Virus record (IMG/VR): IMGVR_UViG_3300010396_000006
Location: 41,648 to 105,647 of that record
Source of the DNA: a virus
Length of the DNA: 64,000 nt
Strand: one strand, 5' to 3'
Shown here: positions 3,930-24,478 of the stretch, one piece after another
Numbering within the stretch: the first letter of the stretch is position 1
How the letters are laid out: each line of letters opens with the position of its first letter
Translations under genes and position numbers: made by a program
The notes under the pieces: model-generated
The model's database searches: none
What the model was told of the DNA's origin: nothing
Seen by the model: only the letters and a program-made list of their open reading frames with translations

Positions 3930-4166
3930 ATGGCCAAAATCGATCTGACCGACTTAGAGCAGATCCGGACGTCATGCCCGGTCTGCCTGGGTCGAGTCCA
4001 GAACTGCAATCACTGCGGCAATACGGGAAGAGTCTCATTCAATTCGGATGCTGAATGGCTTTCGGCACGTCGACGAGTCATCACCGATGAACAGCGGCGA
4101 CAGATGGACATGAGGCTCGGTCAACTGGCCGTTGTCGCCTATCTGACCGACGAACTGTATCAGTGA
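3930..4166 (+). CDS. Small zinc-knuckle protein
   Basis: This 78-residue protein contains CPVCLGRVQNCNHCGNTGRV (residues ~16-35), a DnaJ-like CxxCxG zinc knuckle, followed by a helical region. DnaJ-type knuckles bind zinc and unfolded peptides. In phages, isolated copies are common and mostly uncharacterised. It starts six bases after the previous stop. Confidence 0.7.
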   Translation: MAKIDLTDLEQIRTSCPVCLGRVQNCNHCGNTGRVSFNSDAEWLSARRRVITDEQRRQMDMRLGQLAVVAYLTDELYQ

Positions 4167-4604: not shown

Positions 4605-5426
4605 GATAAGCTATCGTCTGCGGAGCGAAGGAAGCTCAGAAGGCAGTTAAAGGAACAAGGCGAATCAATACCCGCTGACCTAACGCCTAAGCCCAATCGT
4701 AAAGCCCATCTGGATAAACTCCCCAATACGGAAACAAAGACACCGAAGACGGAGAGTAAACCAAGGGGCCAAGCGAAGCCAAAGCCCAAAGCGAAAGCCA
4801 AGCCCAAGCCAAGAAAGACTGAGACAACACCGGCCGGTAATGAATCAGTCGATCAACAGAACGAGACGGAACAACCCAAGCCAGTCACGGTAGAAGCGGT
4901 CCCCGCTCCCGAGTCTGAAATCTCACCCGAATCTGTGTCGGGGGGATGGGGGGACGGTGGCAAATATGGTCCATCTGGTCTGACGAAAACGCACGAACAG
5001 CGGATGGTTGTCAGTTCATTCAATTGGCAAAACCGCAATCGATTCCCGCTGGAAAAGGCTGTTGACGAAAACCTGAAGATCGTTGATGCGGTTGATGGCA
5101 AGTCGGATGTCTATCAGGAAATCCTGACCACGACTGTCGAGATGATGAGATCGAAGTCGGCGAGGTCAAAGGGCATTGGATTGCGGGCCGGCGTTCAACT
5201 CGTGACGGCCGTGCAAAAAGACGACCATGCCAAGTTGAGGGCTGAACTGCGTCCGATGGTATTCACTCCTCCCTCCCCTGCGCCAGAGATGCCGGCTCCC
5301 GCAGTTCCGGCCCATGTCGACCAAAGCATGAACATCGATAACAGCCATCGCGTCGTGATCTTCAACATTCCGGATAACGGACGAGATCCACAATTGAAGG
5401 CGCAATTGACTGGGGCCGCTCAATGA
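4599..5426 (+). CDS. terS: Probable terminase small subunit
   Basis: This is a 275-residue protein. The assignment rests on position: it overlaps the large terminase by four bases and shares its promoter. Residues ~1-100 are very basic and low in complexity (KPKPKAKAKPKP-type repeats), then acidic/proline-rich. Residues ~140-225 are helical (SFNWQNRNRFPLEKAV ... MMRSKSARSKGIGLRAGVQLV) and may be the oligomerisation or DNA-binding core. A proline-rich linker and a short tail follow. Small terminases are poorly conserved, so homology cannot be claimed. AAGGGA lies ten bases before the ATG, and the start codon is inside the fourth GAAA hairpin. Confidence 0.6.
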   Translation: MEDKLSSAERRKLRRQLKEQGESIPADLTPKPNRKAHLDKLPNTETKTPKTESKPRGQAKPKPKAKAKPKPRKTETTPAGNESVDQQNETEQPKPVTVEAVPAPESEISPESVSGGWGDGGKYGPSGLTKTHEQRMVVSSFNWQNRNRFPLEKAVDENLKIVDAVDGKSDVYQEILTTTVEMMRSKSARSKGIGLRAGVQLVTAVQKDDHAKLRAELRPMVFTPPSPAPEMPAPAVPAHVDQSMNIDNSHRVVIFNIPDNGRDPQLKAQLTGAAQ

Positions 5427-7150
5427 GTTCCGTTCTCGAACAGTACGGACCAAATGCGACGATCGTAGGACCGCAACCGGGTCCCCAGACTCAGGCCATG
5501 CAGAGCGCTGCCGATATCGTGATCATGGGTGGGGCGAACGGAGGGGGCAAATCGCATTGGATTCTGCTCGAAGCAGCGCGTCATGCCCGAGTGCCAGGAT
5601 ATCGAGCTGTCGTGTTCCGGCGTGAATCGACTGATATCACTGACCCCGGCGGACTCCAAGATACGTCGATGACGATCTATCCCCAGCTTGATGGATGGTT
5701 CCGATCCAACAAACTGGATTGGATATTCGATCCGGATGCTCGCATTTCATTCCGAGGACTGCCGCACGCCAAGGATGCTATCTCGTGGGATGGAAAAGAA
5801 CTGGCGTTCATCGGCTTTGATGAATTGCAATTGTTCACCGAATTTCAATTCTGGTATCTGTTCAGCCGCATGAGGTCCAGTTGCGGCGTCAACCCCGTTA
5901 TTCGAGCGACATGCAATCCCGTTCATGAGGAAGATCCGACCGGCGGATGGTTGAAGATCCTGATTGGCTGGTGGCTCAACTGGGAAACCGGGTTTCCAAT
6001 TCCAGAGCGATCCGGGAAAGTGCGATGGTTCGTGCGGTTGAACAATGAACTTCACTGGGGCGATTCCCGCGAAGAACTGATTGAGCGATTCACCGATCCG
6101 GACAGTAAAGAGGAAGGCCCAACCGTCTTTCCGATGTCGATCACGTTCATCCCGTCGAAGTTACGGGACAACCCGATACTGATGAACTCGTCGCCCCAGT
6201 ATCGAGCCAGCTTGATGGCGTTGCCGGACTATCTGAAGAAACAGAAATACGAAGGCAACTGGAACGCGAAACTTCAGGCCGGAACATTCTTCAAGATTGG
6301 TGTGATGGGCCGCAAAGGTCAGATCATTCCGATAGAGGAACTGCCGGCGATCGGCCTACGTTATTGCCGTGCCTGGGATCTGGCATACACGGAAGGGGCT
6401 GGAGACTGGACCGTTGGTGACTTATTGGCGACTGATGGGAAAGGAACATTTTATCTCATTGATCAAGTTCGTGGACAATGGGAATCAAGCAATCGCAATG
6501 ATCGAATGTTGGCAGTCGCCGCTGACGATGAAGAGAAATACGGTCGAGTCAAGATCTGCGTTCCACAAGATCCATCGGCCGGAACTGAAATTTGTGAGCG
6601 ACTGCTGAAAATGTTTGCCGGTTATTGGGTTGTCGGTCGAAGGCCAATCAAGAACAAGGCAGAGCGAGCGTCGGCTTATTCGTCGTCATTCAATGGCGGA
6701 AATGTGAAGTTCGTCAAAGCGCCATGGAATTCCGGATTGCTTCAACGAATGGATTCATTCCCGACGAAAGATATCCCAGATGATGAGATTGACGCATCTG
6801 CGGACGCCTATGAAGAACTCAGAGGCCCATCGCCTGGGGGAGCAATGGCTGATCAAAGTGCCGTTGCCAACCCGACAGAGAAGGAAAACGTCAATCCGTT
6901 CCGCGGGTTGCTGGAAAGCTATGTTCGCGAATTCTGGTCGACCATGTCGAAGAATGAACCAACCTGTCCCGAGTGGAAGGGATCGTTGGCAAGATTCGTT
7001 GATGATGTCGGTGAGCGCCCAAGCGACGATCACAAACTCGCAAGACGCGATCGCAACGAACTATGGGGTCCAGCAAACTTCTACTGGCAACTGGGCGATG
7101 AACCGCCTCCACCGATCAAAAGAGGCTGGGGCAAGGCAATGGCGGATTGA
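5423..7150 (+). CDS. terL: Terminase large subunit
   Basis: This 575-residue protein is the ATP-driven motor that packages phage DNA into the prohead through the portal and cuts it. The ATPase domain shows a Walker A variant GGANGGGKSH (residues ~36-45) and a Walker B AFIGFDEL (~127-134) with the catalytic D-E pair. The RNase H-like nuclease domain begins near residue 315 (RAWDLAYTEGAGDWTVG, first catalytic Asp) and closes with DDEIDASADAYEEL (~453). The last ~110 residues form an extra C-terminal extension. The upstream gene overlaps by four bases. The portal is 7 kb downstream, unusually far. A truncated ATPase paralogue lies at 12208. Confidence 0.95.
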   Translation: MSSVLEQYGPNATIVGPQPGPQTQAMQSAADIVIMGGANGGGKSHWILLEAARHARVPGYRAVVFRRESTDITDPGGLQDTSMTIYPQLDGWFRSNKLDWIFDPDARISFRGLPHAKDAISWDGKELAFIGFDELQLFTEFQFWYLFSRMRSSCGVNPVIRATCNPVHEEDPTGGWLKILIGWWLNWETGFPIPERSGKVRWFVRLNNELHWGDSREELIERFTDPDSKEEGPTVFPMSITFIPSKLRDNPILMNSSPQYRASLMALPDYLKKQKYEGNWNAKLQAGTFFKIGVMGRKGQIIPIEELPAIGLRYCRAWDLAYTEGAGDWTVGDLLATDGKGTFYLIDQVRGQWESSNRNDRMLAVAADDEEKYGRVKICVPQDPSAGTEICERLLKMFAGYWVVGRRPIKNKAERASAYSSSFNGGNVKFVKAPWNSGLLQRMDSFPTKDIPDDEIDASADAYEELRGPSPGGAMADQSAVANPTEKENVNPFRGLLESYVREFWSTMSKNEPTCPEWKGSLARFVDDVGERPSDDHKLARRDRNELWGPANFYWQLGDEPPPPIKRGWGKAMAD

Positions 7151-8127: not shown

Positions 8128-8214
8128 AATGAAGCCGCTACTGAAATGGCTCATTCAGTTATTGGGTAGTTCCAAGTCATGGGATGACGAATGGGATTCA
8201 TCGCTTGTTGACTG
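8128..8214 (+). CDS. Possible 28-residue peptide
   Basis: ATG at 8128 with GGAAAG eight bases upstream opens a 28-codon frame: a short amphipathic/hydrophobic helix (MKPLLKWLIQLLG) followed by an acidic, Trp-containing end. It overlaps the start of the next gene by 31 bases. It could be a real membrane-active micropeptide or a translational coupler; the evidence is only the ribosome site and the composition. Confidence 0.35.
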
Positions 8215-8738
8215 AACAATATCTTGAACTCAAAAGCCGTGTCGCGGCTGAATACAGTTCTGAAATCGAGTGGGCGGCAAATCTCAAGCTGTGCGCCGAC
8301 TCGCTTCGATTCGCCTATGAAACGATCTGGGTCATTCTGAACGCCGGGATGAAGATGCAGGTTGCTCGACAGATCGAATCAAAGATCCTGCCGACACTGG
8401 CCAAAGGCGAATCGGCATCAATGGTATTCGGTCACAAACTGAAATGCCGGGCAATTGATGATGTCTGGAAGAATCGAGTCAAACTGTTCAGCGAGTACCA
8501 ATCGGCAAATGACAAGCTGGAATACCTCGAAACACTGCCGCACATTGGGCCGATCACCAAATTCCATCTGGCTCGAAATCTTGGTTTAGACTTCTGCAAA
8601 CCAGACCGTCACTTAGTTCGTATTGCAGGAGATGAGACGGCGTCAGTAATGTGTCAGCGGCTGGCGGACGCGACTGGCGATCGAATTGGCGTTGTTGATT
8701 GTGTGATCTGGCGAGCCGCAAATCTGGGGTGGGTGTGA
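8184..8738 (+). CDS. HhH-GPD-like DNA glycosylase/endonuclease III-fold protein
   Basis: The 184-residue protein ends in a helix-hairpin-helix block (LPHIGPITKFHLARNLG, residues ~114-130) followed by CKPDRHLVRIAG. This corresponds to the helix-hairpin-helix plus catalytic aspartate (VDTH-like) of the HhH-GPD base-excision family. The lysine used by bifunctional glycosylase/lyases at the GRKT position is not at the expected place, so a monofunctional or divergent enzyme is likely. It is smaller than EndoIII and lacks an iron-sulphur cysteine cluster. A role in phage DNA repair or in attack on modified host DNA would fit. The start at 8184 has no good ribosome site. Confidence 0.65.
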   Translation: MTNGIHRLLTEQYLELKSRVAAEYSSEIEWAANLKLCADSLRFAYETIWVILNAGMKMQVARQIESKILPTLAKGESASMVFGHKLKCRAIDDVWKNRVKLFSEYQSANDKLEYLETLPHIGPITKFHLARNLGLDFCKPDRHLVRIAGDETASVMCQRLADATGDRIGVVDCVIWRAANLGWV

Positions 8739-12192: not shown

Positions 12193-12207
12193 ATGAGGAG
12201 TGAATTA

Positions 12208-12927
12208 ATGGGAACGCAAGTTTGGAATGTGGCATCGCTGCTCGTCATGACGTCTATGTTCATTGGCTTGGCGACAATGCTCTATCGAGCATTCCGTCAT
12301 CAACCGGACGTGAAGACTCCAGAAGATCCATACGGATTCGGTTGCAAGCCAACGCCGATTCAATTGAGAGTCCTGAAATCAACGGCTGACATCGTGATCT
12401 ATTGCGGGCCTGCTGGATCTGGAAAGAGCATGCTGATGCGAATGGCCGCAATGATGCGAGCCAGGTTGTATCCGTCACAGCCTATCCTCACGTTCTGGTT
12501 TCAGCAGCGAGAAACGTGGGAAATGTTGGACAAGCACATTCCGTCAATTCGCGTGATCGGCCTCAAAGGCATCAATGAGGCTTGTGATCAATTTGCGGGA
12601 GTTGCGGCCCACACGATTTGCATCGACGGGATTGACTGGATCAGGGAAGAGTCGTTCTGGTTTCTGCTGTCGCGGTTGCGATCGAACGATTCGAACGTCA
12701 ATCCGCAAATGTTCTGCTCAATGGATCGTCTTACAGATCCAAAGCCGCTATGGCTCGCAAAGCTGGTGAAGCATTGGGAGGAACCAGCAGACGGAATCGG
12801 CATTCGTGGAAAGCGGAATGGAATCCGTCACTTCCAAAGGATTGACGGCAATTTGCATCTTGTGGATATCACAAAGCATGATGCGTTGCTCAGCAAGCCG
12901 ATCTCGATCGAATACATCCAAGGATGA
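12208..12927 (+). CDS. Membrane-anchored paralogue of the terminase ATPase domain
   Basis: This is a 239-residue protein; the start at 12208 has GAGGAG eight bases upstream, with ATG 12193 as the alternative. Residues ~5-28 form a transmembrane helix. Residues ~50-239 align with the ATPase domain of the large terminase at 5423. PTPIQ...ADIVIYCGPAGSGKSM (Walker A ~67) parallels its ADIVIMGGANGGGKSH, and SFWFLLSRLRS...NVNP parallels FWYLFSRMRS...GVNP. The Walker B position reads ICIDGID where TerL has IGFDELQ, so the catalytic glutamate is replaced by glycine. The nuclease domain is absent. ATP binding seems possible and hydrolysis doubtful. It could be an inhibitor, a membrane docking factor or an exclusion protein; no function is established. 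Confidence 0.75.
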   Translation: MGTQVWNVASLLVMTSMFIGLATMLYRAFRHQPDVKTPEDPYGFGCKPTPIQLRVLKSTADIVIYCGPAGSGKSMLMRMAAMMRARLYPSQPILTFWFQQRETWEMLDKHIPSIRVIGLKGINEACDQFAGVAAHTICIDGIDWIREESFWFLLSRLRSNDSNVNPQMFCSMDRLTDPKPLWLAKLVKHWEEPADGIGIRGKRNGIRHFQRIDGNLHLVDITKHDALLSKPISIEYIQG

Positions 12928-13947: not shown

Positions 13948-14241
13948 GTGAATTCAAGACCATTGGCCGATCAGGTGATCATCAAGCGAGATGACGCCGA
14001 AAAAGTGACTCAGGGAGGAATCCACCTGCCGGATCGAGCGCAGAACGTCCCGCGAAAAGGAACTGTCCTCGCCGCAGGACCTGGGCGACTTCTGGACAAC
14101 GGAACCCGCGGAGAAATGGAACTGAAAGCCGGGGATCGAGTCTATTTCTCAGCTTACGGCGTTCAGGAAGTGGAGATTGACGACGAAAAAGTCATCATCT
14201 GCCGGGAGGCGGATGTGTTAGCGGTGATCGAATCTGAGTGA
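13948..14241 (+). CDS. groES: Phage-encoded GroES co-chaperonin
   Basis: This 97-residue protein is the normal GroES length, starting at GTG with CAGGAG upstream. It begins RPLADQVIIKRDDAEKVTQGGIHLPD, with the mobile-loop GGI/LP motif that docks on GroEL. GTVLAAGPGR and KAGDRVYFSAYG follow, the conserved GroES strands. Phage co-chaperonins such as T4 gp31 replace host GroES to fold the capsid protein. Its position directly upstream of the portal fits a role in head assembly. No GroEL is visible. Confidence 0.92.
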   Translation: MNSRPLADQVIIKRDDAEKVTQGGIHLPDRAQNVPRKGTVLAAGPGRLLDNGTRGEMELKAGDRVYFSAYGVQEVEIDDEKVIICREADVLAVIESE

Positions 14242-14320: not shown

Positions 14321-14341
14321 CAGGCAAGGATGTCACAAATC

Positions 14342-17300
14342 ATGAGCCGACGCCGCAACCGCAACCGTCGCGTTGAGAACTATCGCAAGAATTCGGATCG
14401 GGTTGTTGAGCATCCAAATGTTCCGGCCCCCGAACTGAACGACTCCCAAATCAAGTCGATGGCGTCTCAGATGCGGGCGGCTCTGGCCGGAAGCTTCGGC
14501 GGCGCTCAAGTCACGAATCACCGCGAAGAAGCTCTCCACTATGAGGGCAATAGCTACGTCAATATCGCGGCCATCTGCGCCCAAATGATGATGGTGACGA
14601 TAACAGCCTATGTCGACGGATCGAACCAGCTTCGACAGCAGTCGGTCCGGAAGTCGCTGCGAGGTCTCGTCGGAAGCCGATGGAAGTCTCAATATGGGGT
14701 TGATGAGGCATCGTCGAAGCAACTCGAATCAGACCATTACCTGATGCGATTGCTGTCGAAGCCAAATCCGCACGAACCGGGCAGCATGTTCCGGTATCGG
14801 CAAACTCTTCAACTCAGGCTCACTGGAGGTGCGTTCCTGTGGAACGTCCCAAATATCAACGGCCGGACGTGCGAACGGTACGTCATCCCCACCACATGCC
14901 TGACGCCGGTCTATCCAGACAACACGTTGCCGTACGGTGGTTATCGCGTTCAACCAAACTGTATGCGATGGATTCCACTGGTTGACGATGGATTCGTGAT
15001 CGGGACCCCGGCCCTGATGCGAGTGTTGGGCATGATCATTGATGCCCGAGAAATCCAAAAGGTTGGCTATCCACATCCGATCTGGCTGGATGACTTCCAA
15101 AGCCCGATGTCTGCTGGCGCTCAGTGGGTCGATGCCGAACGATCGATCAACATCGCACGGGCAATGGGCATCAGCCGCGGCATGAATCCGAGCGGTTTCC
15201 TTGAACTATCCAAAGAATACATGGGCATCGAACAAGATGCGCTGAACATCACTCAGCGGAAACTCGATCGACAATATGGCGGCGTCAACAACACGGGCAA
15301 GGTCATTGCCGTGGCTCCCGATACCAAGTTCACCGGATACGATCGAAGCCCGAAAGACATGGAATACCATGAAGGGTACTTGGATCACCGGGAAGCGAAT
15401 CAGTCTCTACACGGCGTTCATCCGATCATCACTGGCGGACAGCCCCCCGGCGCATACGCGGCCTACTACGCCGCCATGCGAGCATTCGACAACAACACGT
15501 TGACTCCCATTTGTGACATGCTGGCGGAATCAGACACGTTCCACATTGCACCGCAATTCGGCGAAGGGATCACGATCGAGATCGAGCCAAAGCCGATCAA
15601 CGATGAGGACGAACTGAATTCACGTCTCCAGGTCGATGGTCAATTGGGGATCATCAAGGTCAATGAAGCGCGAGCATTGCGAGGAATGCCGCCATTGGAC
15701 GGAGCGCAAGGAGAAAAGCTGTGCGGACCGACTTCAAAGGATAAGGTTGGTCAGGATCAAGACAGCGACAATCCATCCAAGCCGAAGAAACCAAAGCAGT
15801 CTGGCGATGCGCCGTCAACTCCCGAGGTCCAAGAAGCCGAACAAGCGGACGTCCCCAAGGCTCCCGAAAATCCCATCGTCGGCAAGAGTGAATCAAAATC
15901 ACTTCAAGCCGCAATGGAAGGGATGAAGGAGGCGGACGAAGACTACATTCAAGAAATAGTTGCCAAGGCGTTGGATTCGCGACTGAAGGCGATGCAACCT
16001 GCCGAGAAGCCAAAGCGGAAGTATTCCTCGACGCAGTTTGATCTGCCTGCCGGTCTCGCCGAAAAAGTGCAGGAGATGGCAGCCCTGATCAATCCGGCCG
16101 ATCTCGCATCGGATGGAATCGAAGAAAATCCGCACGTGACTTGCTTGTACGGGCTGACCGAAGAATCACCCAATGATGTCAAGAAAGCCGTCAAGGGAAT
16201 CTCGGCCGGTCCGATCGTTCTTGAATCGCTGTCGTTGTTCCCGGCTGGTGACAAGCTTGCTCAGCATGGCGGCGAACAGTTCGACGTTTTGAAGATCAGC
16301 ATCGGCGGAAAGTTCATTCACGAGATTCACAATGCGATCGCAGAATCGTGCGAGTATGAAACCGATTATGCCGACTATTCTCCTCACTGTACGATCGCCT
16401 ACTTGAAGCCGGGAAAAGGCCGCAAGTATGTGACGATGAACAATCCAGTGGATGGGATGACGTTCATTCCTGACAAGCTGATCTTCAGTAGCAAAAACCG
16501 AACGGTCTCGGCAATTCGATTGAGCGTTCTGAAATCAGTCGAAGAACAACCATCAGAAGCTCAGATTACTGCCGGCAATTACAAAAAAGATCACATCACA
16601 ATTCAGGGGCTAAGGATCTCAATCGAAAATCCGAAAGGATCTGTTCGAAGTGGTCGTGACGATGATGGCAATGAGTGGTCAACGAAAATGCGGAATGATT
16701 ACGGCTACATCAAAGGAACGAAATCAGATTCCGATGGTGATCACATTGATGTCTTCGTTGGGCCAAATCCAAGTTCAGAATTGGTGTTCGTAATTGATCA
16801 GGTCAATCCGCAAAGCGGGCAACATGACGAACACAAATGCATGTTGGGATTCGATTCGAAAGATCAAGCGAAGTCTGCCTATCTCGAAAACTATTCCAAG
16901 GGTTGGAAAGGCTTCGGCGGCATTACTCCAATGCACATGGATCAATTCAAGGAATGGCTAGACAGCGGAGATTCATCAAAAGGAATCGCGAGAAAATCTC
17001 TCACGGCAGCATTCTCCGAATCAGAAATGAAGGGCCACAATCCAATCAGCGACATCCAAGCCATTGGAAAGAGACTCGCTGAATCCGATTGTGGAATGCC
17101 CGGATACGGTCAGATCTTTATCAAGGAAAACGGATCTGGCCAAGCATGGTATGTCGGTGGCGACGGAGATGAACGAGGATTCGATAAGACTGTCATTCAA
17201 GAACTGAAGAAAGTCACGGGGATTGACGAAGTTCGTTATGAGTCTGAATCGTTCCCGCCCGATGGGGAAGGATGGATTCAGGTCTATCCGAAAGTGTCGA

Positions 17301-20300
17301 AGCGTAAATCTCTCGGCATGTCCGAAGGGATCGGGTCAGATGGAGGATTCGCCGTCGCTTCCGAAGACGAACGATGCCCAAAATGTCCCAAATGCGGATC
17401 ACGGGAAACGCATCATGCTAGAACTGATGGCACAGGGAACGCGATCTGTAGCAATTGCAAATCAATTTTCACTGATCCTGATTATGGAAAACAGAAATCA
17501 GTTTCGTTTCCATCGTCAGAAGTCGTACCGGGCAACAACGGCCATCAATTCCCCAAGAACACATTGATTCTTGGTGGGGATCAAGTTCTGATGCCACCAG
17601 AGTCAGAACTCAAATCCAAATGGATCACGATTCATCCTGGGGGAGACAAAGACGCAACTGGCATTCACATCCTGATTGACGAAGACGGCGAAATCAAAGG
17701 CGGTCCGGCCGAACTGCGAGACAAAGGCATCCGCAAGATGTCTGACTTCGGGAAAGAAGACCTGAAGCCAGTCAAACCAAAAGACAATCACGAGAAGGCC
17801 GCATTCAACGCCAGCAAGCGAGCCGATCAAGCATCCGCCGATGCTAAAGAGTCGGGCGACCTGTTCGACCATATTGCGGCTAAAGAAGCCCACATGCACG
17901 CCGCAGCCCATCACAGCAAAGGCGGCAATGAAGATCAGGCGTCATATCACAGAAAGGCGGCTCAACAGCACGGTTCAGCCGCGACACCAACGGCTCCAGC
18001 GTCAAACGGACAACTGAGCGACGAAAAGATCATCCAGGCAATGAAGCCATCCGTTGATCGCAGCGGCATGGTTGAGGCCGAAGAACTGCGATCGATGCCA
18101 GAATTCGCTGGGATGTCGAAAGAGAAATTCGACCAACGAATGATGGACATGGCCAAAGTTGATCAGCCGGGCGGACCGAAGGTCTCGTTGCACCGATACG
18201 ACCGAGCCGAATCGCTGTCAGCGGACGATAAAAAAAAGATGATCTTCGATCCGGATGCGCCGGCACGATTCGAAGATGGACAAAAGGGAGCGTATTACAA
18301 TGCGGTCTCCATCCGCAAATCGTTGTCAGAAATGAAATCGCATTGGATTACGATCCATCCTCATGGCGATGAGCATGATGGAACGCACGTTTTGATCGAT
18401 GGAGAAGGGAATATCGAAGGCGGTCCCGAAGGACTGGCGAAACGTGGGATTCACAAGCTGTCCGACTTTGGGAAAGGCGGCGAATCAGCAGACAAACCAC
18501 ACGAAACCCGTGAAGAGTGGGCGAAGAGACATTCCGATGCCGCCGATCATTGGTTACATGGAGTGAACAATGATCTGGCAGCCGTGCATCAAGAACACGG
18601 CGACTTGATCACAAAAAAGCACATGACGGACAGCTTTCGAAATCACGTCAATACCGGAAGAATGACCCCAGATCAATATGAGGATCATGTTTCTAAGGGA
18701 ACCATTCTCGGTGGACACGATTACGAACGCGCTCAGCATGTCGAGCAGAAAATCCATGAGATCAAAAATCGTCCGCTAACTGTCCCGGAGCCAGATGGAA
18801 AGCATCCATACGTTGAACCGCCCGCCAAGCCGCCGGAAGAAAAGCCAGAAATCCGACCAGACATCGACGCTCCGATCAGCAAGAAAGACACGCCTCGCGA
18901 AACGGCGGCAAAGCAAAAGAAGATTGACGATGATTATGCGTTTGCTCGCAATTCATCCATCCCGAATGTCGGCGAAGATGTTGCCGATTCGGCTCGTCAC
19001 AAGCGAAATGCTTGGCGTGGATTGGAAGATGCGGAATCCAATGGAACCGCCGAATCAATGGTGACTCGTGATAATCTGCTCAAGGCCGAACCGCACAACT
19101 TGATGTCTCATGCCGGAAAACATCCACTGACATCACTGGCCATGCATTACGCGATGAGATCGTTCCCAGCGAAACCATCCAGCAATCGCGAAGTGGCCAA
19201 TGCCAGCGATCGGAAGGACTATCACGAAGCGTATCAGAGCATCAAAGCAAAAGCCGAGCATCTGGCGGAAACAGAATCCGATCCACGGGCAGCCGCAGAG
19301 AAGCTACGAGAACACGTCGGCAATCATCTGAAGGGATTGAGGGAGCGGAAGATTCCCGGACCCACAATTCCCGTGGCCGATCGATACAACAAGACCGCGA
19401 ACAATTTGGTTGGAATGCACAAGGCGTTACGATTCGCCAGCTACGGCCGACCATCGGCAAATAGCGTTCATGGCAAGATGGAAGAGTTCTCAAAGGCGAT
19501 GGCCGGGAAATATGGACTTCCAGAAAAGTATGAACCTGAAGCGGCCAAGCAATTCGCCTCCCATATTGAGACTCACGCCAAGGACATTATTGACGGGAAA
19601 TCGCTTCCACAGTCATTTGGCATTAAGGGAGAAAAGAAAAACGAATTTAATCCTGCCGATCGATACGTCAAGCATGCTGAACGAGCCGGGGGCAAGGATG
19701 TCAGTCACCAAACCGCAACGGGAGTCTCGGCGGCAAACTCCGTCGTAAACGACTTCGGGATGCGTGGCGTCCAATGGGGTAACAGCGTCACTGACGACGA
19801 ACGCCATCATCACGCTGCCAAGGTTGTCGAAGCGTTGACCGATCTGGCCGATACTCTCGGCATCAAGCCGGCTGATCTCAGTCTCGGCGGAAAGCTGGCC
19901 TTGGCCATTGGCGCTCGCGGTAAGGGAACTGCCTCGGCTCATTACGAACCGCATACCCAGGCCATCAACCTGACGCGGGCCAGCGGAGTCGGTACTCTCG
20001 CCCATGAGTGGGGACACGCCTTTGATCATTCACTGGAGAATTTCGCGAATCGTGCGACGAGTGCGGTCTATCACAGCGAAAACTATCGATCCAGTCCGGC
20101 AATGCAAAAGCTGACATCCGATTTCCGATCATCGGGATTCACGAATCGAATTCATAGTGAGGTTCGTGATATGGTGCGTCAGGGCCTGATGTCGAAAAAG
20201 AAAGCGGAATACTGGCTATCAACCAGAGAACAATTCGCCCGTTGCTTCGAGAGTTATGTTCAACACAAGCTGGCTGACACGAATCAGAAGAATACGTATC

Positions 20301-21037
20301 TTGCTGGTCTGATTTCGGACGGCGGCTTGTGGCCGACCAAGGAAGAAACGGCCAAGATGGCCCCCGCTTTTGACAGTCTGTTCGCTGAATTCCGCAAACA
20401 AAAGTATGGAAGCGAAAATCGGATTGATCAGTCTCGATCGGAAATCAAATCGGCAGTCTTGGATTTGGTTGGTCAATCCGTCTTTAAATCGTCGCGATGG
20501 ATCACAATCCATCCGCACGGTGAAGACGCGAAAGGCGTCCATATCCAGATCAATGACGACGGCGAGATCCTGTCAGGTCCCGCACATCTTCGCGACAAGG
20601 GAATTACCCACATGGGGGATTTCGCGAAGCGGGGAAGCAATCAAGCGGCCGTGGACGAACTGAAGCCTCACGCTCTCGAATTCCTGACCGAGCAACACAA
20701 GCTGAGAGAACATCACAAAGCCGAAGCTCGCAAACTGACTGGCAAGAATGCCGGCAATCTGGCGATGTCGGAAAACAGCTATCACGATCATTCGGATGCT
20801 CATCGATTCGAGACCGCCGCTCGCACATTCGCCCGAGAGAATCCCGATGCTGGATTGAATCCAGATGCTCACGACACGCCGGCCAAAGTCTGGGAGCTAA
20901 TCCGGGAGGGCAAGAAGAAAGCCCCGCTGATCAATTCGAAGGAAGTCCACGAGACAGCCAGAGCCTGGGTGAAGAATCACCGAACGAAGCGTGCGCCGGT
21001 AGGCACATACGAACACGATTCCGATTGGAACTTCTGA
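14342..21037 (+). CDS. Portal protein fused to a giant polyvalent C-terminus
   Basis: This is a 2,231-residue protein; start 14342 has AAGGA ten bases upstream, with ATG 14330 also possible. Residues ~1-480 are an HK97-type portal, the dodecameric DNA channel at the head vertex. Then follow in order: a proline/lysine linker; a 2H phosphodiesterase-like domain with two H-x-T motifs (PHVTCL ~598, PHCTIAYL ~681); an inorganic-pyrophosphatase-like domain as found in polyvalent proteins (~740-880, DGDHIDVFVGP); a zinc ribbon (~1011-1045); and three WITIHP-DGEI-GP repeats (~1093, ~1334, ~2052). A zincin domain resembling LPD1 has LAHEWGHAFDH (~1886) and a downstream REQFARCFESY glutamate. Portals usually have 400-550 residues. 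The extra enzymes are probably packaged with, and perhaps injected from, the capsid; that is inference. Confidence 0.9.
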   Translation: MSRRRNRNRRVENYRKNSDRVVEHPNVPAPELNDSQIKSMASQMRAALAGSFGGAQVTNHREEALHYEGNSYVNIAAICAQMMMVTITAYVDGSNQLRQQSVRKSLRGLVGSRWKSQYGVDEASSKQLESDHYLMRLLSKPNPHEPGSMFRYRQTLQLRLTGGAFLWNVPNINGRTCERYVIPTTCLTPVYPDNTLPYGGYRVQPNCMRWIPLVDDGFVIGTPALMRVLGMIIDAREIQKVGYPHPIWLDDFQSPMSAGAQWVDAERSINIARAMGISRGMNPSGFLELSKEYMGIEQDALNITQRKLDRQYGGVNNTGKVIAVAPDTKFTGYDRSPKDMEYHEGYLDHREANQSLHGVHPIITGGQPPGAYAAYYAAMRAFDNNTLTPICDMLAESDTFHIAPQFGEGITIEIEPKPINDEDELNSRLQVDGQLGIIKVNEARALRGMPPLDGAQGEKLCGPTSKDKVGQDQDSDNPSKPKKPKQSGDAPSTPEVQEAEQADVPKAPENPIVGKSESKSLQAAMEGMKEADEDYIQEIVAKALDSRLKAMQPAEKPKRKYSSTQFDLPAGLAEKVQEMAALINPADLASDGIEENPHVTCLYGLTEESPNDVKKAVKGISAGPIVLESLSLFPAGDKLAQHGGEQFDVLKISIGGKFIHEIHNAIAESCEYETDYADYSPHCTIAYLKPGKGRKYVTMNNPVDGMTFIPDKLIFSSKNRTVSAIRLSVLKSVEEQPSEAQITAGNYKKDHITIQGLRISIENPKGSVRSGRDDDGNEWSTKMRNDYGYIKGTKSDSDGDHIDVFVGPNPSSELVFVIDQVNPQSGQHDEHKCMLGFDSKDQAKSAYLENYSKGWKGFGGITPMHMDQFKEWLDSGDSSKGIARKSLTAAFSESEMKGHNPISDIQAIGKRLAESDCGMPGYGQIFIKENGSGQAWYVGGDGDERGFDKTVIQELKKVTGIDEVRYESESFPPDGEGWIQVYPKVSKRKSLGMSEGIGSDGGFAVASEDERCPKCPKCGSRETHHARTDGTGNAICSNCKSIFTDPDYGKQKSVSFPSSEVVPGNNGHQFPKNTLILGGDQVLMPPESELKSKWITIHPGGDKDATGIHILIDEDGEIKGGPAELRDKGIRKMSDFGKEDLKPVKPKDNHEKAAFNASKRADQASADAKESGDLFDHIAAKEAHMHAAAHHSKGGNEDQASYHRKAAQQHGSAATPTAPASNGQLSDEKIIQAMKPSVDRSGMVEAEELRSMPEFAGMSKEKFDQRMMDMAKVDQPGGPKVSLHRYDRAESLSADDKKKMIFDPDAPARFEDGQKGAYYNAVSIRKSLSEMKSHWITIHPHGDEHDGTHVLIDGEGNIEGGPEGLAKRGIHKLSDFGKGGESADKPHETREEWAKRHSDAADHWLHGVNNDLAAVHQEHGDLITKKHMTDSFRNHVNTGRMTPDQYEDHVSKGTILGGHDYERAQHVEQKIHEIKNRPLTVPEPDGKHPYVEPPAKPPEEKPEIRPDIDAPISKKDTPRETAAKQKKIDDDYAFARNSSIPNVGEDVADSARHKRNAWRGLEDAESNGTAESMVTRDNLLKAEPHNLMSHAGKHPLTSLAMHYAMRSFPAKPSSNREVANASDRKDYHEAYQSIKAKAEHLAETESDPRAAAEKLREHVGNHLKGLRERKIPGPTIPVADRYNKTANNLVGMHKALRFASYGRPSANSVHGKMEEFSKAMAGKYGLPEKYEPEAAKQFASHIETHAKDIIDGKSLPQSFGIKGEKKNEFNPADRYVKHAERAGGKDVSHQTATGVSAANSVVNDFGMRGVQWGNSVTDDERHHHAAKVVEALTDLADTLGIKPADLSLGGKLALAIGARGKGTASAHYEPHTQAINLTRASGVGTLAHEWGHAFDHSLENFANRATSAVYHSENYRSSPAMQKLTSDFRSSGFTNRIHSEVRDMVRQGLMSKKKAEYWLSTREQFARCFESYVQHKLADTNQKNTYLAGLISDGGLWPTKEETAKMAPAFDSLFAEFRKQKYGSENRIDQSRSEIKSAVLDLVGQSVFKSSRWITIHPHGEDAKGVHIQINDDGEILSGPAHLRDKGITHMGDFAKRGSNQAAVDELKPHALEFLTEQHKLREHHKAEARKLTGKNAGNLAMSENSYHDHSDAHRFETAARTFARENPDAGLNPDAHDTPAKVWELIREGKKKAPLINSKEVHETARAWVKNHRTKRAPVGTYEHDSDWNF

Positions 21038-21144
21038 TTCATCAATAGCCAGACAGTTGCGGAATCTCTAAGATTTCTGCGATTGATCTGGTCCCGTTGA
21101 TGGAGCATGAAGATGATTCAACGCATGCAAGAAAGGTTTTCAAA

Positions 21145-21831
21145 ATGGAGATGAATCGACGCTCACTACTCGGAATGATCCTTGGTTCGGCTTGCTCGTT
21201 ATTATTGCCAACTAAGTCGATATCCGCTGGTTTGAAGTCACTGGAAATTCCGGTCGATGCGAACGGCATCCCAATTCACTGTTATGTCTGGAACGTGCCA
21301 AACATCAACGGCCGGACGTGCCAGAGACATATTATTCCTGTCGACGATCTTGCATTGATTAAAGCGAATACGGAGTTGCCTTATAGTGGGTATCGTATCA
21401 GCCAATCCCCCAATCGATGGGCATCCATGCCGCTTTATGGGGAAAGCCCGGTTGAAAATCCATCATTGCGAGTCGCTGGATATATCATTGATGACAGGCA
21501 AGTAGAACGAATCTCTCCATCGAATCCATTTCGGCTGAAGTTGCTTTACCATCATGACGTCGAGGTATGCTTTATTGACGGGTCTGCCGATGACTCGATC
21601 GCCTTCTATCTCGCATGGCAAAGATGCCGCCAAACTCCATCGCAAGAATCGGAGTTGCGAAAACATTTAGCGAATGGCGACGGCATTGCGATTGGCTTTC
21701 GCAAATCAAATTTGATGTCTTTTGTGGCAATCAACCAAGCGGTTATGGACTGCGGTGTCCCATGCTTTGAGACAGACAAAATGACAGAAAGCGAAAATCG
21801 ATGCACGCGGACGTATGCTCACGTCAGCTAG
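21145..21831 (+). CDS. Export-signal protein containing a duplicated portal fragment
   Basis: This is a 228-residue protein; ATG 21145 has GAAAGG eight bases upstream. Residues ~3-28 read NRRSLLGMILGSACSLLL..., a signal peptide with a twin-arginine-like opening and a small-residue end (SISA). Residues ~46-125 are clearly related to portal residues ~165-250: both contain WNVPNINGRTC followed by a R..IP, LPY.GYR, RW and a YIID/MIID segment. The remaining ~100 residues do not resemble the portal. The portal clip and stem are absent, so it cannot form a channel. It may interfere with packaging of competitors or act outside the cytoplasm; no function is established. Confidence 0.7.
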   Translation: MEMNRRSLLGMILGSACSLLLPTKSISAGLKSLEIPVDANGIPIHCYVWNVPNINGRTCQRHIIPVDDLALIKANTELPYSGYRISQSPNRWASMPLYGESPVENPSLRVAGYIIDDRQVERISPSNPFRLKLLYHHDVEVCFIDGSADDSIAFYLAWQRCRQTPSQESELRKHLANGDGIAIGFRKSNLMSFVAINQAVMDCGVPCFETDKMTESENRCTRTYAHVS

Positions 21832-23608: not shown

Positions 23609-23769
23609 AGCTCTGTCGCATCCGTGGCCTCAATCCGAACGAAGTGATCCAGGCCGCATGCCCAGAGATTGAGAACGACAAGAACGTCTATATGTGGGAA
23701 TCGGTCGTTGGTGAGATCCGCCGAGCCGTGGAAGTTCAGGAAGCAATCGAGTTCGCGAAAGGCCTGTAA
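23572..23769 (+). CDS. Small helical protein
   Basis: This 65-residue helical protein lies between its overlapping neighbour and the ClpC-like gene. RDRIRQAAMKLCRIRGLNPNEVI at the start is a plausible DNA- or protein-binding helix pair. The start codon is inside the preceding gene. Confidence 0.55.
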   Translation: MWDRDRIRQAAMKLCRIRGLNPNEVIQAACPEIENDKNVYMWESVVGEIRRAVEVQEAIEFAKGL

Positions 23770-23803
23770 CTCAATTGCGTCATCTAAAACAGGAAAGATT
23801 CCA

Positions 23804-24478
23804 ATGTACGAACGATTCACGGATCGGGCCGCGAAAATAATGCAATTGGCCAATCAAGAAGCCCAGCGATTCAATCATGAATACATCGGGACCGAACATA
23901 TTCTGTTGGGACTCGTGAAAGAGGGTTCAGGTGTTGCGTCAAACGTCTTGAGAAATCTGGACATCGACTTACGCAAGATCCGCTTGGAAGTTGAAAAGAT
24001 GGTCGGAAGCGGTCCCGATATGATCACAATGGGAAAGCTGCCTCGGACGCCAGGGGCGAAGCGGGTTGTTGAACTGGCGATCGAGTCCGCGAATGCACTC
24101 GGGACAAATTACGTCGGGACCGAACATCTGTTGCTTGGTCTGATCGGCGAGAGTGAAGGCATTGCGTTCCAAGTGTTGCAGAAACTTGGTGCTACAAATG
24201 ACAAGGTGATTGCCGAGTGGGAATCGCTGATGGGCCAGACAGCGCCCGGCAGATCAACAAAGCCAGTTCGGGAACCACTGGCGTTTGTTTTCGCGAATTA
24301 TCCCCAAGCGTACGTTCCGATATTCGATACGCCGCGGAGCATGCCTCCGGTCATGGAGGAAGTGATCACGATTCTCGGCGTGTCCATGTGGAACGGTCGG
24401 GAATGGGTCTCGCGCTTCGGTGCCAAATGCGACCAGAAGTTGATCAAATGGTGGATACCGTTGTTCAATGTGGTTTGA
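23804..24478 (+). CDS. Stand-alone ClpC N-terminal domain protein
   Basis: This 224-residue protein has GGAAAG before its ATG. Residues 1-~145 are a complete double Clp_N repeat: YERFTDRAAKIMQLANQEA, EYIGTEHILLGLVKEGSGVA, then the second NYVGTEHLLLGLIGESEGIA. It is close to the N-domain of bacterial ClpC, which recruits substrates and adaptors. The AAA+ modules are missing; instead a ~75-residue unrelated tail rich in Pro and Trp follows (APGRSTKPVREPLAFVFANY...). It may have been captured from a host clpC, and could act as a decoy that sequesters ClpC adaptors or as an adaptor itself. The sequence agrees best with my memory of planctomycete ClpC, which suggests the host. Confidence 0.85.
   Translation: MYERFTDRAAKIMQLANQEAQRFNHEYIGTEHILLGLVKEGSGVASNVLRNLDIDLRKIRLEVEKMVGSGPDMITMGKLPRTPGAKRVVELAIESANALGTNYVGTEHLLLGLIGESEGIAFQVLQKLGATNDKVIAEWESLMGQTAPGRSTKPVREPLAFVFANYPQAYVPIFDTPRSMPPVMEEVITILGVSMWNGREWVSRFGAKCDQKLIKWWIPLFNVV

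What the first reader, a model, noticed from the sequence alone, without database searches (positions are those of the whole stretch)
12208..12927. Membrane-anchored, probably ATPase-dead duplicate of the terminase motor domain
The protein has an N-terminal membrane helix fused to a domain clearly related to the ATPase of the phage's own TerL (same Walker A context, FW..LSR.RS and NVNP/GVNP segments). The Walker B D-E pair has become D-G and the nuclease is missing. A membrane-bound terminase mimic could block packaging of competing phages, tether proheads, or regulate its own TerL.
Basis: partly seen in the sequence, partly recalled or inferred. Interest (0 to 1): 0.8.

Follow-up and report, generated by a model that had tools for sequence, protein, structure and literature searches.

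The report
Membrane-anchored, inactive copy of packaging motor
A bacterial virus carries, besides its normal DNA-packaging motor, a second, shortened copy of the motor's engine domain that is fixed to the cell membrane, seems able to hold ATP but not to burn it, and still carries the contact that normally reaches into the neighbouring motor subunit, so it may steer, block or mimic packaging motors.

Summary
Gene 12208-12927 (239 aa) has one N-terminal membrane helix and a domain homologous to the TerL ATPase (phrog_979, E=1e-15; own TerL 28% over 205 aa, E=5e-14). It ends where the TerL ATPase ends; the nuclease is absent. Compared with 61 related TerLs it keeps Walker A and the Walker B Asp but has lost the catalytic Glu (G141), the TxNP motif and other invariant residues. 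New here: it keeps the SRxR pair (R156/R158), 15 residues after the Glu position, where phage D6E TerL has its essential trans-acting arginine finger. So it looks like a subunit that cannot fire but could still contact a neighbour. No ortholog was found in IMG/VR, GTDB contigs or GenBank phages; a syntenic sister phage lacks it. ATPase-only TerL paralogues are not unprecedented: phrog_15848 lies beside TerL in Nankokuvirus, without membrane helix and with the Glu. The same genome holds a second partial copy of a packaging protein: a portal fragment behind a signal-like leader. Function is inferred: most likely it engages TerL-type motors at the membrane. Own regulation, inhibition of rivals, immune decoy or an unrelated new role remain open.

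The parts
12208..12927 (+). Gene of the membrane-anchored, nuclease-less TerL-ATPase paralogue (239 aa)
12196..12200 (+). Ribosome-binding site AGGAG, 7 nt before ATG 12208
   Evidence: sequence
12229..12297 (+). N-terminal membrane helix (residues 8-30), followed by YRAFRH, which suggests that the ATPase domain is cytoplasmic
   Evidence: topology inferred
12406..12429 (+). Walker A GPAGSGKS (residues 67-74), intact
12613..12630 (+). Walker B TICIDG (residues 136-141): Asp kept, catalytic Glu replaced by Gly
12670..12684 (+). SRLRS (residues 155-159): R156 at Glu position +15 in the alpha3-beta4 loop, the place of the D6E trans-arginine finger R158
12715..12729 (+). CSMDR (residues 170-174) in place of the TerL ATCNP motif
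5423..7150 (+). The phage's own full-length TerL (phrog_979; ATPase plus RNaseH-like nuclease)
14330..21037 (+). Portal domain in a 2235-residue open frame
21145..21831 (+). Partial portal copy (42% over 88 residues) behind a signal-like leader; possible companion, link to the TerL paralogue not shown

Best explanation
It is a TerL-derived pseudo-ATPase on the cell membrane. Shown by sequence: TerL ATPase homology, a hydrophobic N-terminal helix, an intact nucleotide-binding loop, loss of the catalytic Glu, of the TxNP motif and of the nuclease, and retention of the SRxR pair. Inferred: it binds ATP without hydrolysing it, faces the cytoplasm, and meets TerL-type subunits through the ring interface as a non-firing partner that could present the arginine finger to a neighbour but cannot itself drive DNA. 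It would thereby tether or restrain packaging motors at the membrane, either the phage's own (timing or place of packaging) or those of competing phages.
For: TerL homology. Of the columns invariant in 61 TerLs it keeps those of the nucleotide pocket (Q, P-loop G and K, Walker B D) and R156/R158, and loses the Glu and NP. In D6E TerL the corresponding E143 (cis) and R158 (trans, Glu +15) are each essential for ATP hydrolysis and the isolated ATPase domain forms pentamers (PMC5727402); the +15 spacing is the same here and in three other proteins measured. An independent ATPase-only paralogue, phrog_15848, also keeps Walker A and SRLR and changes the TxNP motif, and is under purifying selection, dN about 0.14 against dS 0.93. 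Gene position between TerL and portal. Dead subunits impair T4, phi29 and lambda motors to different degrees (PMC8589836). T4 begins prohead assembly at the inner membrane (PMC9958956).
Against: No interaction was tested. R156/R158 may be kept for folding only. Other residues invariant in TerL, some perhaps at the ring interface, are lost, and 23 residues between Walker A and Walker B are deleted. The C-terminal arm proposed to bind the portal is absent. No ortholog is known, so selection on this gene cannot be measured.
Confidence: 0.38

Rival explanations
1. Neofunctionalised membrane NTP-binding protein: the TerL ATPase fold was co-opted for an unrelated job (for example exclusion, lysis timing or signalling) and no longer meets terminases.
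For: Only 37 of 107 conserved TerL columns remain and 16 are gaps; very long branch; it lies in a stretch of small cargo-like genes between TerL and portal.
Against: The retained residues include both the nucleotide pocket and the SRxR pair; phrog_15848 shows the same choice of retained parts.
Confidence: 0.25
2. Immune decoy: a membrane-held mimic of TerL, perhaps together with the portal fragment 21145-21831, that occupies host sensors which recognise TerL or portal, such as Avs proteins, without activating them.
For: The only two substantial internal paralogue pairs of the genome copy TerL and portal, and both copies carry hydrophobic leaders; Avs1-4 recognise TerL, portal or another phage protein (PMC12931631).
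Against: No host or sensor is known; fragments might activate rather than block a sensor; the portal leader looks like a signal sequence, which would export the fragment; no such decoy was found in the papers searched.
Confidence: 0.13
3. Decaying remnant of an exchanged or duplicated TerL gene without function.
For: The syntenic sister phage has a TerL of another type (phrog_38 ATPase, nuclease 38% identical), so terminases were exchanged in this lineage; many catalytic residues are lost.
Against: A 239-codon open frame with ribosome-binding site, intact Walker A, ordered predicted fold and an added membrane helix after extreme divergence.
Confidence: 0.12

Closest known systems
phrog_979 terminase large subunits, including this phage's own TerL
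   Same: Homologous ATPase domain, Walker A, Walker B Asp, SRxR, order of strands
   Different: TerLs are soluble, have the catalytic Glu, the TxNP motif and a nuclease domain; this protein has a membrane helix and none of the other three
phrog_15848, ATPase-only TerL paralogue of Nankokuvirus (CHA_P10165 of phage CHA_P1; KPP10, Ab03)
   Same: Second TerL-like gene in a phage with an intact TerL, no nuclease, Walker A and SRLR kept, TxNP motif changed, close to TerL
   Different: No membrane helix, Walker B Glu kept, different residues overall (25% identity, E=5e-5); conserved across a genus, whereas the window gene is a singleton
Phage D6E and P74-26 TerL ATPase domains (solved structures)
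   Same: Predicted fold matches at Z about 12; D6E finger position (Glu +15) kept
   Different: Catalytically active packaging motors without membrane anchor

Membership tests
TerL ATPase domain (homology) | Significant sequence match to TerL families | tested here: met
   phrog_979 E=1.3e-15; own TerL E=5e-14
TerL ATPase domain (homology) | TerL-type ATPase fold | tested here: inconclusive
   AF2 model matches TerL domains at Z about 12, but a helicase-like protein ties at 12.8
Functional TerL | Catalytic Glu after the Walker B Asp | tested here: not met
   G141; Glu in 98% of 61 TerLs
Functional TerL | TxNP motif | tested here: not met
   CSMDR; N and P invariant in 61 TerLs
Functional TerL | C-terminal nuclease domain | tested here: not met
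   protein ends at the end of the ATPase core
phrog_15848 ATPase-only paralogue | Match to the family profile | tested here: not met
   no phrog_15848 match at E up to 1; pairwise 25%, E=5e-5
Single-pass membrane protein | One strongly hydrophobic N-terminal helix | tested here: met
   hydropathy 1.87 over 19 residues; AF2 helix 8-30; location in the cell not tested
Anti-immune decoy | Binds and blocks a TerL- or portal-sensing defence protein | not testable with these tools
   none

The most novel reading that the evidence does not exclude
The phage makes membrane-targeted, inactive pieces of two packaging proteins, the TerL engine and the portal, as protein decoys or blockers, either to evade host sensors that recognise these proteins or to stop packaging by rival phages.
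Probability: 0.15. Interest if true: 0.85.

Novelty: new variant of a known kind. Interest (0 to 1): 0.55.

Why it matters
TerL packaging motors are taken as rings of identical subunits. A natural TerL-like protein that lacks the firing Glu but keeps the finger that serves a neighbour would make the question of how subunits trigger each other directly testable, and would suggest that phages use dead motor parts as regulators, weapons or decoys. That ATPase-only TerL paralogues also exist in cultivated Pseudomonas phages gives a laboratory system for the general question.

Tried and rejected
Ortholog searches with the protein and with alignments in IMG/VR, GTDB contigs, GenBank phages and 785 genomes of two phyla gave only full-length TerLs or unrelated proteins (a 261-residue hit, L119, runs off its contig end). 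These pattern-based scans can miss distant orthologs; metagenome contigs could not be searched. Among about 80 TerL-bearing viral loci and ten whole records no second truncated copy turned up, with limited flanks. Capsid and portal searches gave one sister phage and one distant capsid match. Structure alone does not separate TerL from SF1/SF2-like folds; KaiC leads the Foldseek list but at rmsd above 11. A split-TerL artefact is rejected because the phage has an intact TerL. The tree joins the protein to its own TerL (99/88), but its branch is about 10 changes per column, so long-branch attraction is possible; rare shared residues are 8 against 7 for the next TerLs. Paper searches found no description of such a TerL paralogue, but the library lacks many journals.

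Full report
What is there. The window is the last 64 kb of a 105.6-kb virus record whose two ends share a 123-bp direct repeat, so the genome is probably complete. Gene 12208-12927 lies between TerL (5423-7150) and portal (14330-21037), all on the + strand. It starts 7 nt after AGGAG and has a coding-like codon pattern. The protein has 239 residues: a membrane helix (8-30), a linker of low model confidence, and an ATPase-like domain (about 43-239).

Homology. PHROGs gives TerL family phrog_979 at E=1.3e-15; BLASTP to the phage's own TerL gives E=5e-14, 28% over 205 residues. The AF2 model (pLDDT 83.7, pTM 0.75) matches TerL ATPase domains at Z about 12 (P74-26, Sf6, D6E), with one helicase-like protein, SLFN11, scoring equally. 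Sequence, not fold alone, makes the assignment.

What is kept and lost. In an alignment with 61 TerL ATPases, 107 columns are at least 80% conserved. The own TerL keeps 82; this protein keeps 37 and has gaps in 16. Kept (its own numbering): Q52, A60-D61-I62, the P-loop G67/G72/K73, G131, Walker B D140, F150, R156, R158, G196, R207. Lost (own-TerL numbering): the catalytic E134 (here G141), N165-P166 of the TxNP motif (here CSMDR), R66, G76, W183, R196, G198 and D249-N250 at the domain end. From the Walker A Lys to the Walker B Asp there are 67 residues instead of 90; this region holds tunnel-lining residues in D6E TerL, so DNA contacts are probably lost too (inference).

The finger. D6E TerL needs E143 in cis and R158 in trans for ATP hydrolysis; R158 sits in the loop that corresponds to alpha3-beta4, 15 residues after the Glu, and the isolated ATPase domain forms pentamers (PMC5727402). 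The own TerL (E134/R149), the TerL of phage CHA_P1 and the CHA_P1 paralogue have the same spacing. The window protein has Gly at the Glu site and Arg 15 residues on, in the alpha3-beta4 loop of the model. So the residue that serves its own ATP is gone while the residue that would serve a neighbour's ATP is kept. This is the main new observation; that the Arg works as a finger in this TerL family is inferred from D6E.

Precedent. The search of viral structures led to V5JWI7 of Pseudomonas phage CHA_P1; by length and position I identify it with CHA_P10165: 272 residues, phrog_15848, lying just before TerL when the map is closed. It is an ATPase-only TerL paralogue (28% to its own TerL, E=4e-22), present in KPP10-like phages that also have a full TerL, with dN about 0.14 and dS 0.93 between two members. 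It keeps Walker A, DE and SRLR, has TFSHGD where TerL has TCNPD, and has no membrane helix. It is not shown to be an ortholog of the window protein, but it shows that such paralogues are kept by selection. The papers read on these phages do not discuss it.

Distribution and origin. No ortholog was found. A syntenic sister phage (IMGVR_UViG_3300044797_000094; capsid 71% over 363 residues, portal 45% over 691) lacks it and has a TerL with a different ATPase type and a 38% identical nuclease. The own TerL is the nearest relative by BLAST score and by rare shared residues, but narrowly, and phmmer ranks some other TerLs slightly higher. An old in-lineage duplication and a separate acquisition are both possible.

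A second case. Comparing all ORFs of the genome with each other gave only two substantial paralogue pairs: this protein with TerL, and ORF 21097-21831 (likely start 21145) with the portal (42% over 88 residues, 1e-16). The portal fragment follows MEMNRRSLLGMILGSACSLLLPTKSISA, which looks like a signal sequence. Twelve of 124 + strand ORFs have hydrophobic N-termini, so both copies having one would be expected by chance about once in 100; suggestive, noticed after the fact, not proof. TerL and portal are proteins recognised by Avs1-4 (PMC12931631), hence the decoy rival.

Mechanism. Most likely: a membrane-anchored, ATP-holding, non-firing TerL-like subunit that engages TerL-type rings. Dead subunits impair motors to differing degrees: T4 tolerates them with loss of performance, phi29 at most one, lambda none (PMC8589836), so a poison-subunit role is plausible but depends on the phage. 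T4 begins prohead assembly at the inner membrane (PMC9958956), so tethering the phage's own packaging there is also plausible. None of this is shown.

Verdict. It is a new variant of a known but uncharacterised kind, made more interesting by the retained finger site and by the companion portal fragment.

Noticed in passing
21145-21831 (+): Partial copy of the phage's own portal (42% over 88 residues) behind a Tat-like or Sec-like leader; its C-terminal half matches no PHROG or Pfam family.
   Followed up: partly
3930-4166 (+), and 14330-21037 residues 990-1012: Short stretches resembling the phage's own major capsid protein: RQMDMRLGQLAVVAYLTDEL at the end of a 78-aa CxxC protein, and KSLGMSEGIGSDGGFAV inside the portal open frame.
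   Followed up: partly
5423-7150, and L101:676-2208: Syntenic sister phages carry TerLs with different ATPase types (phrog_979 here, phrog_38 there) and similar nuclease domains.
   Followed up: partly
5423-7150, residues about 514-556: The TerL C-terminus has an HNH-like extension (phrog_3377, E=1e-4); a similar stretch is a separate 125-aa ORF in the sister phage (L104:3482-3859).
   Followed up: no
14330-21037 (+): 2235-residue open frame joins portal, 2'-5' RNA ligase-like, inorganic pyrophosphatase-like and LPD1 domains, with repeats of the type KSxWITIHPxG.
   Followed up: no
13948-14241 and 23669-24478 (+): Phage-encoded GroES and a stand-alone Clp N-terminal domain protein, possible hooks on host chaperone and protease systems.
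   Followed up: no
8184-8738 (+): Strong PADLOC match to OGG (8-oxoguanine glycosylase-like), E=8.5e-37.
   Followed up: no
L126:4001-4816: In phage Ab03 the phrog_15848 paralogue is annotated only as the short ORF55, although the full frame is open.
   Followed up: partly
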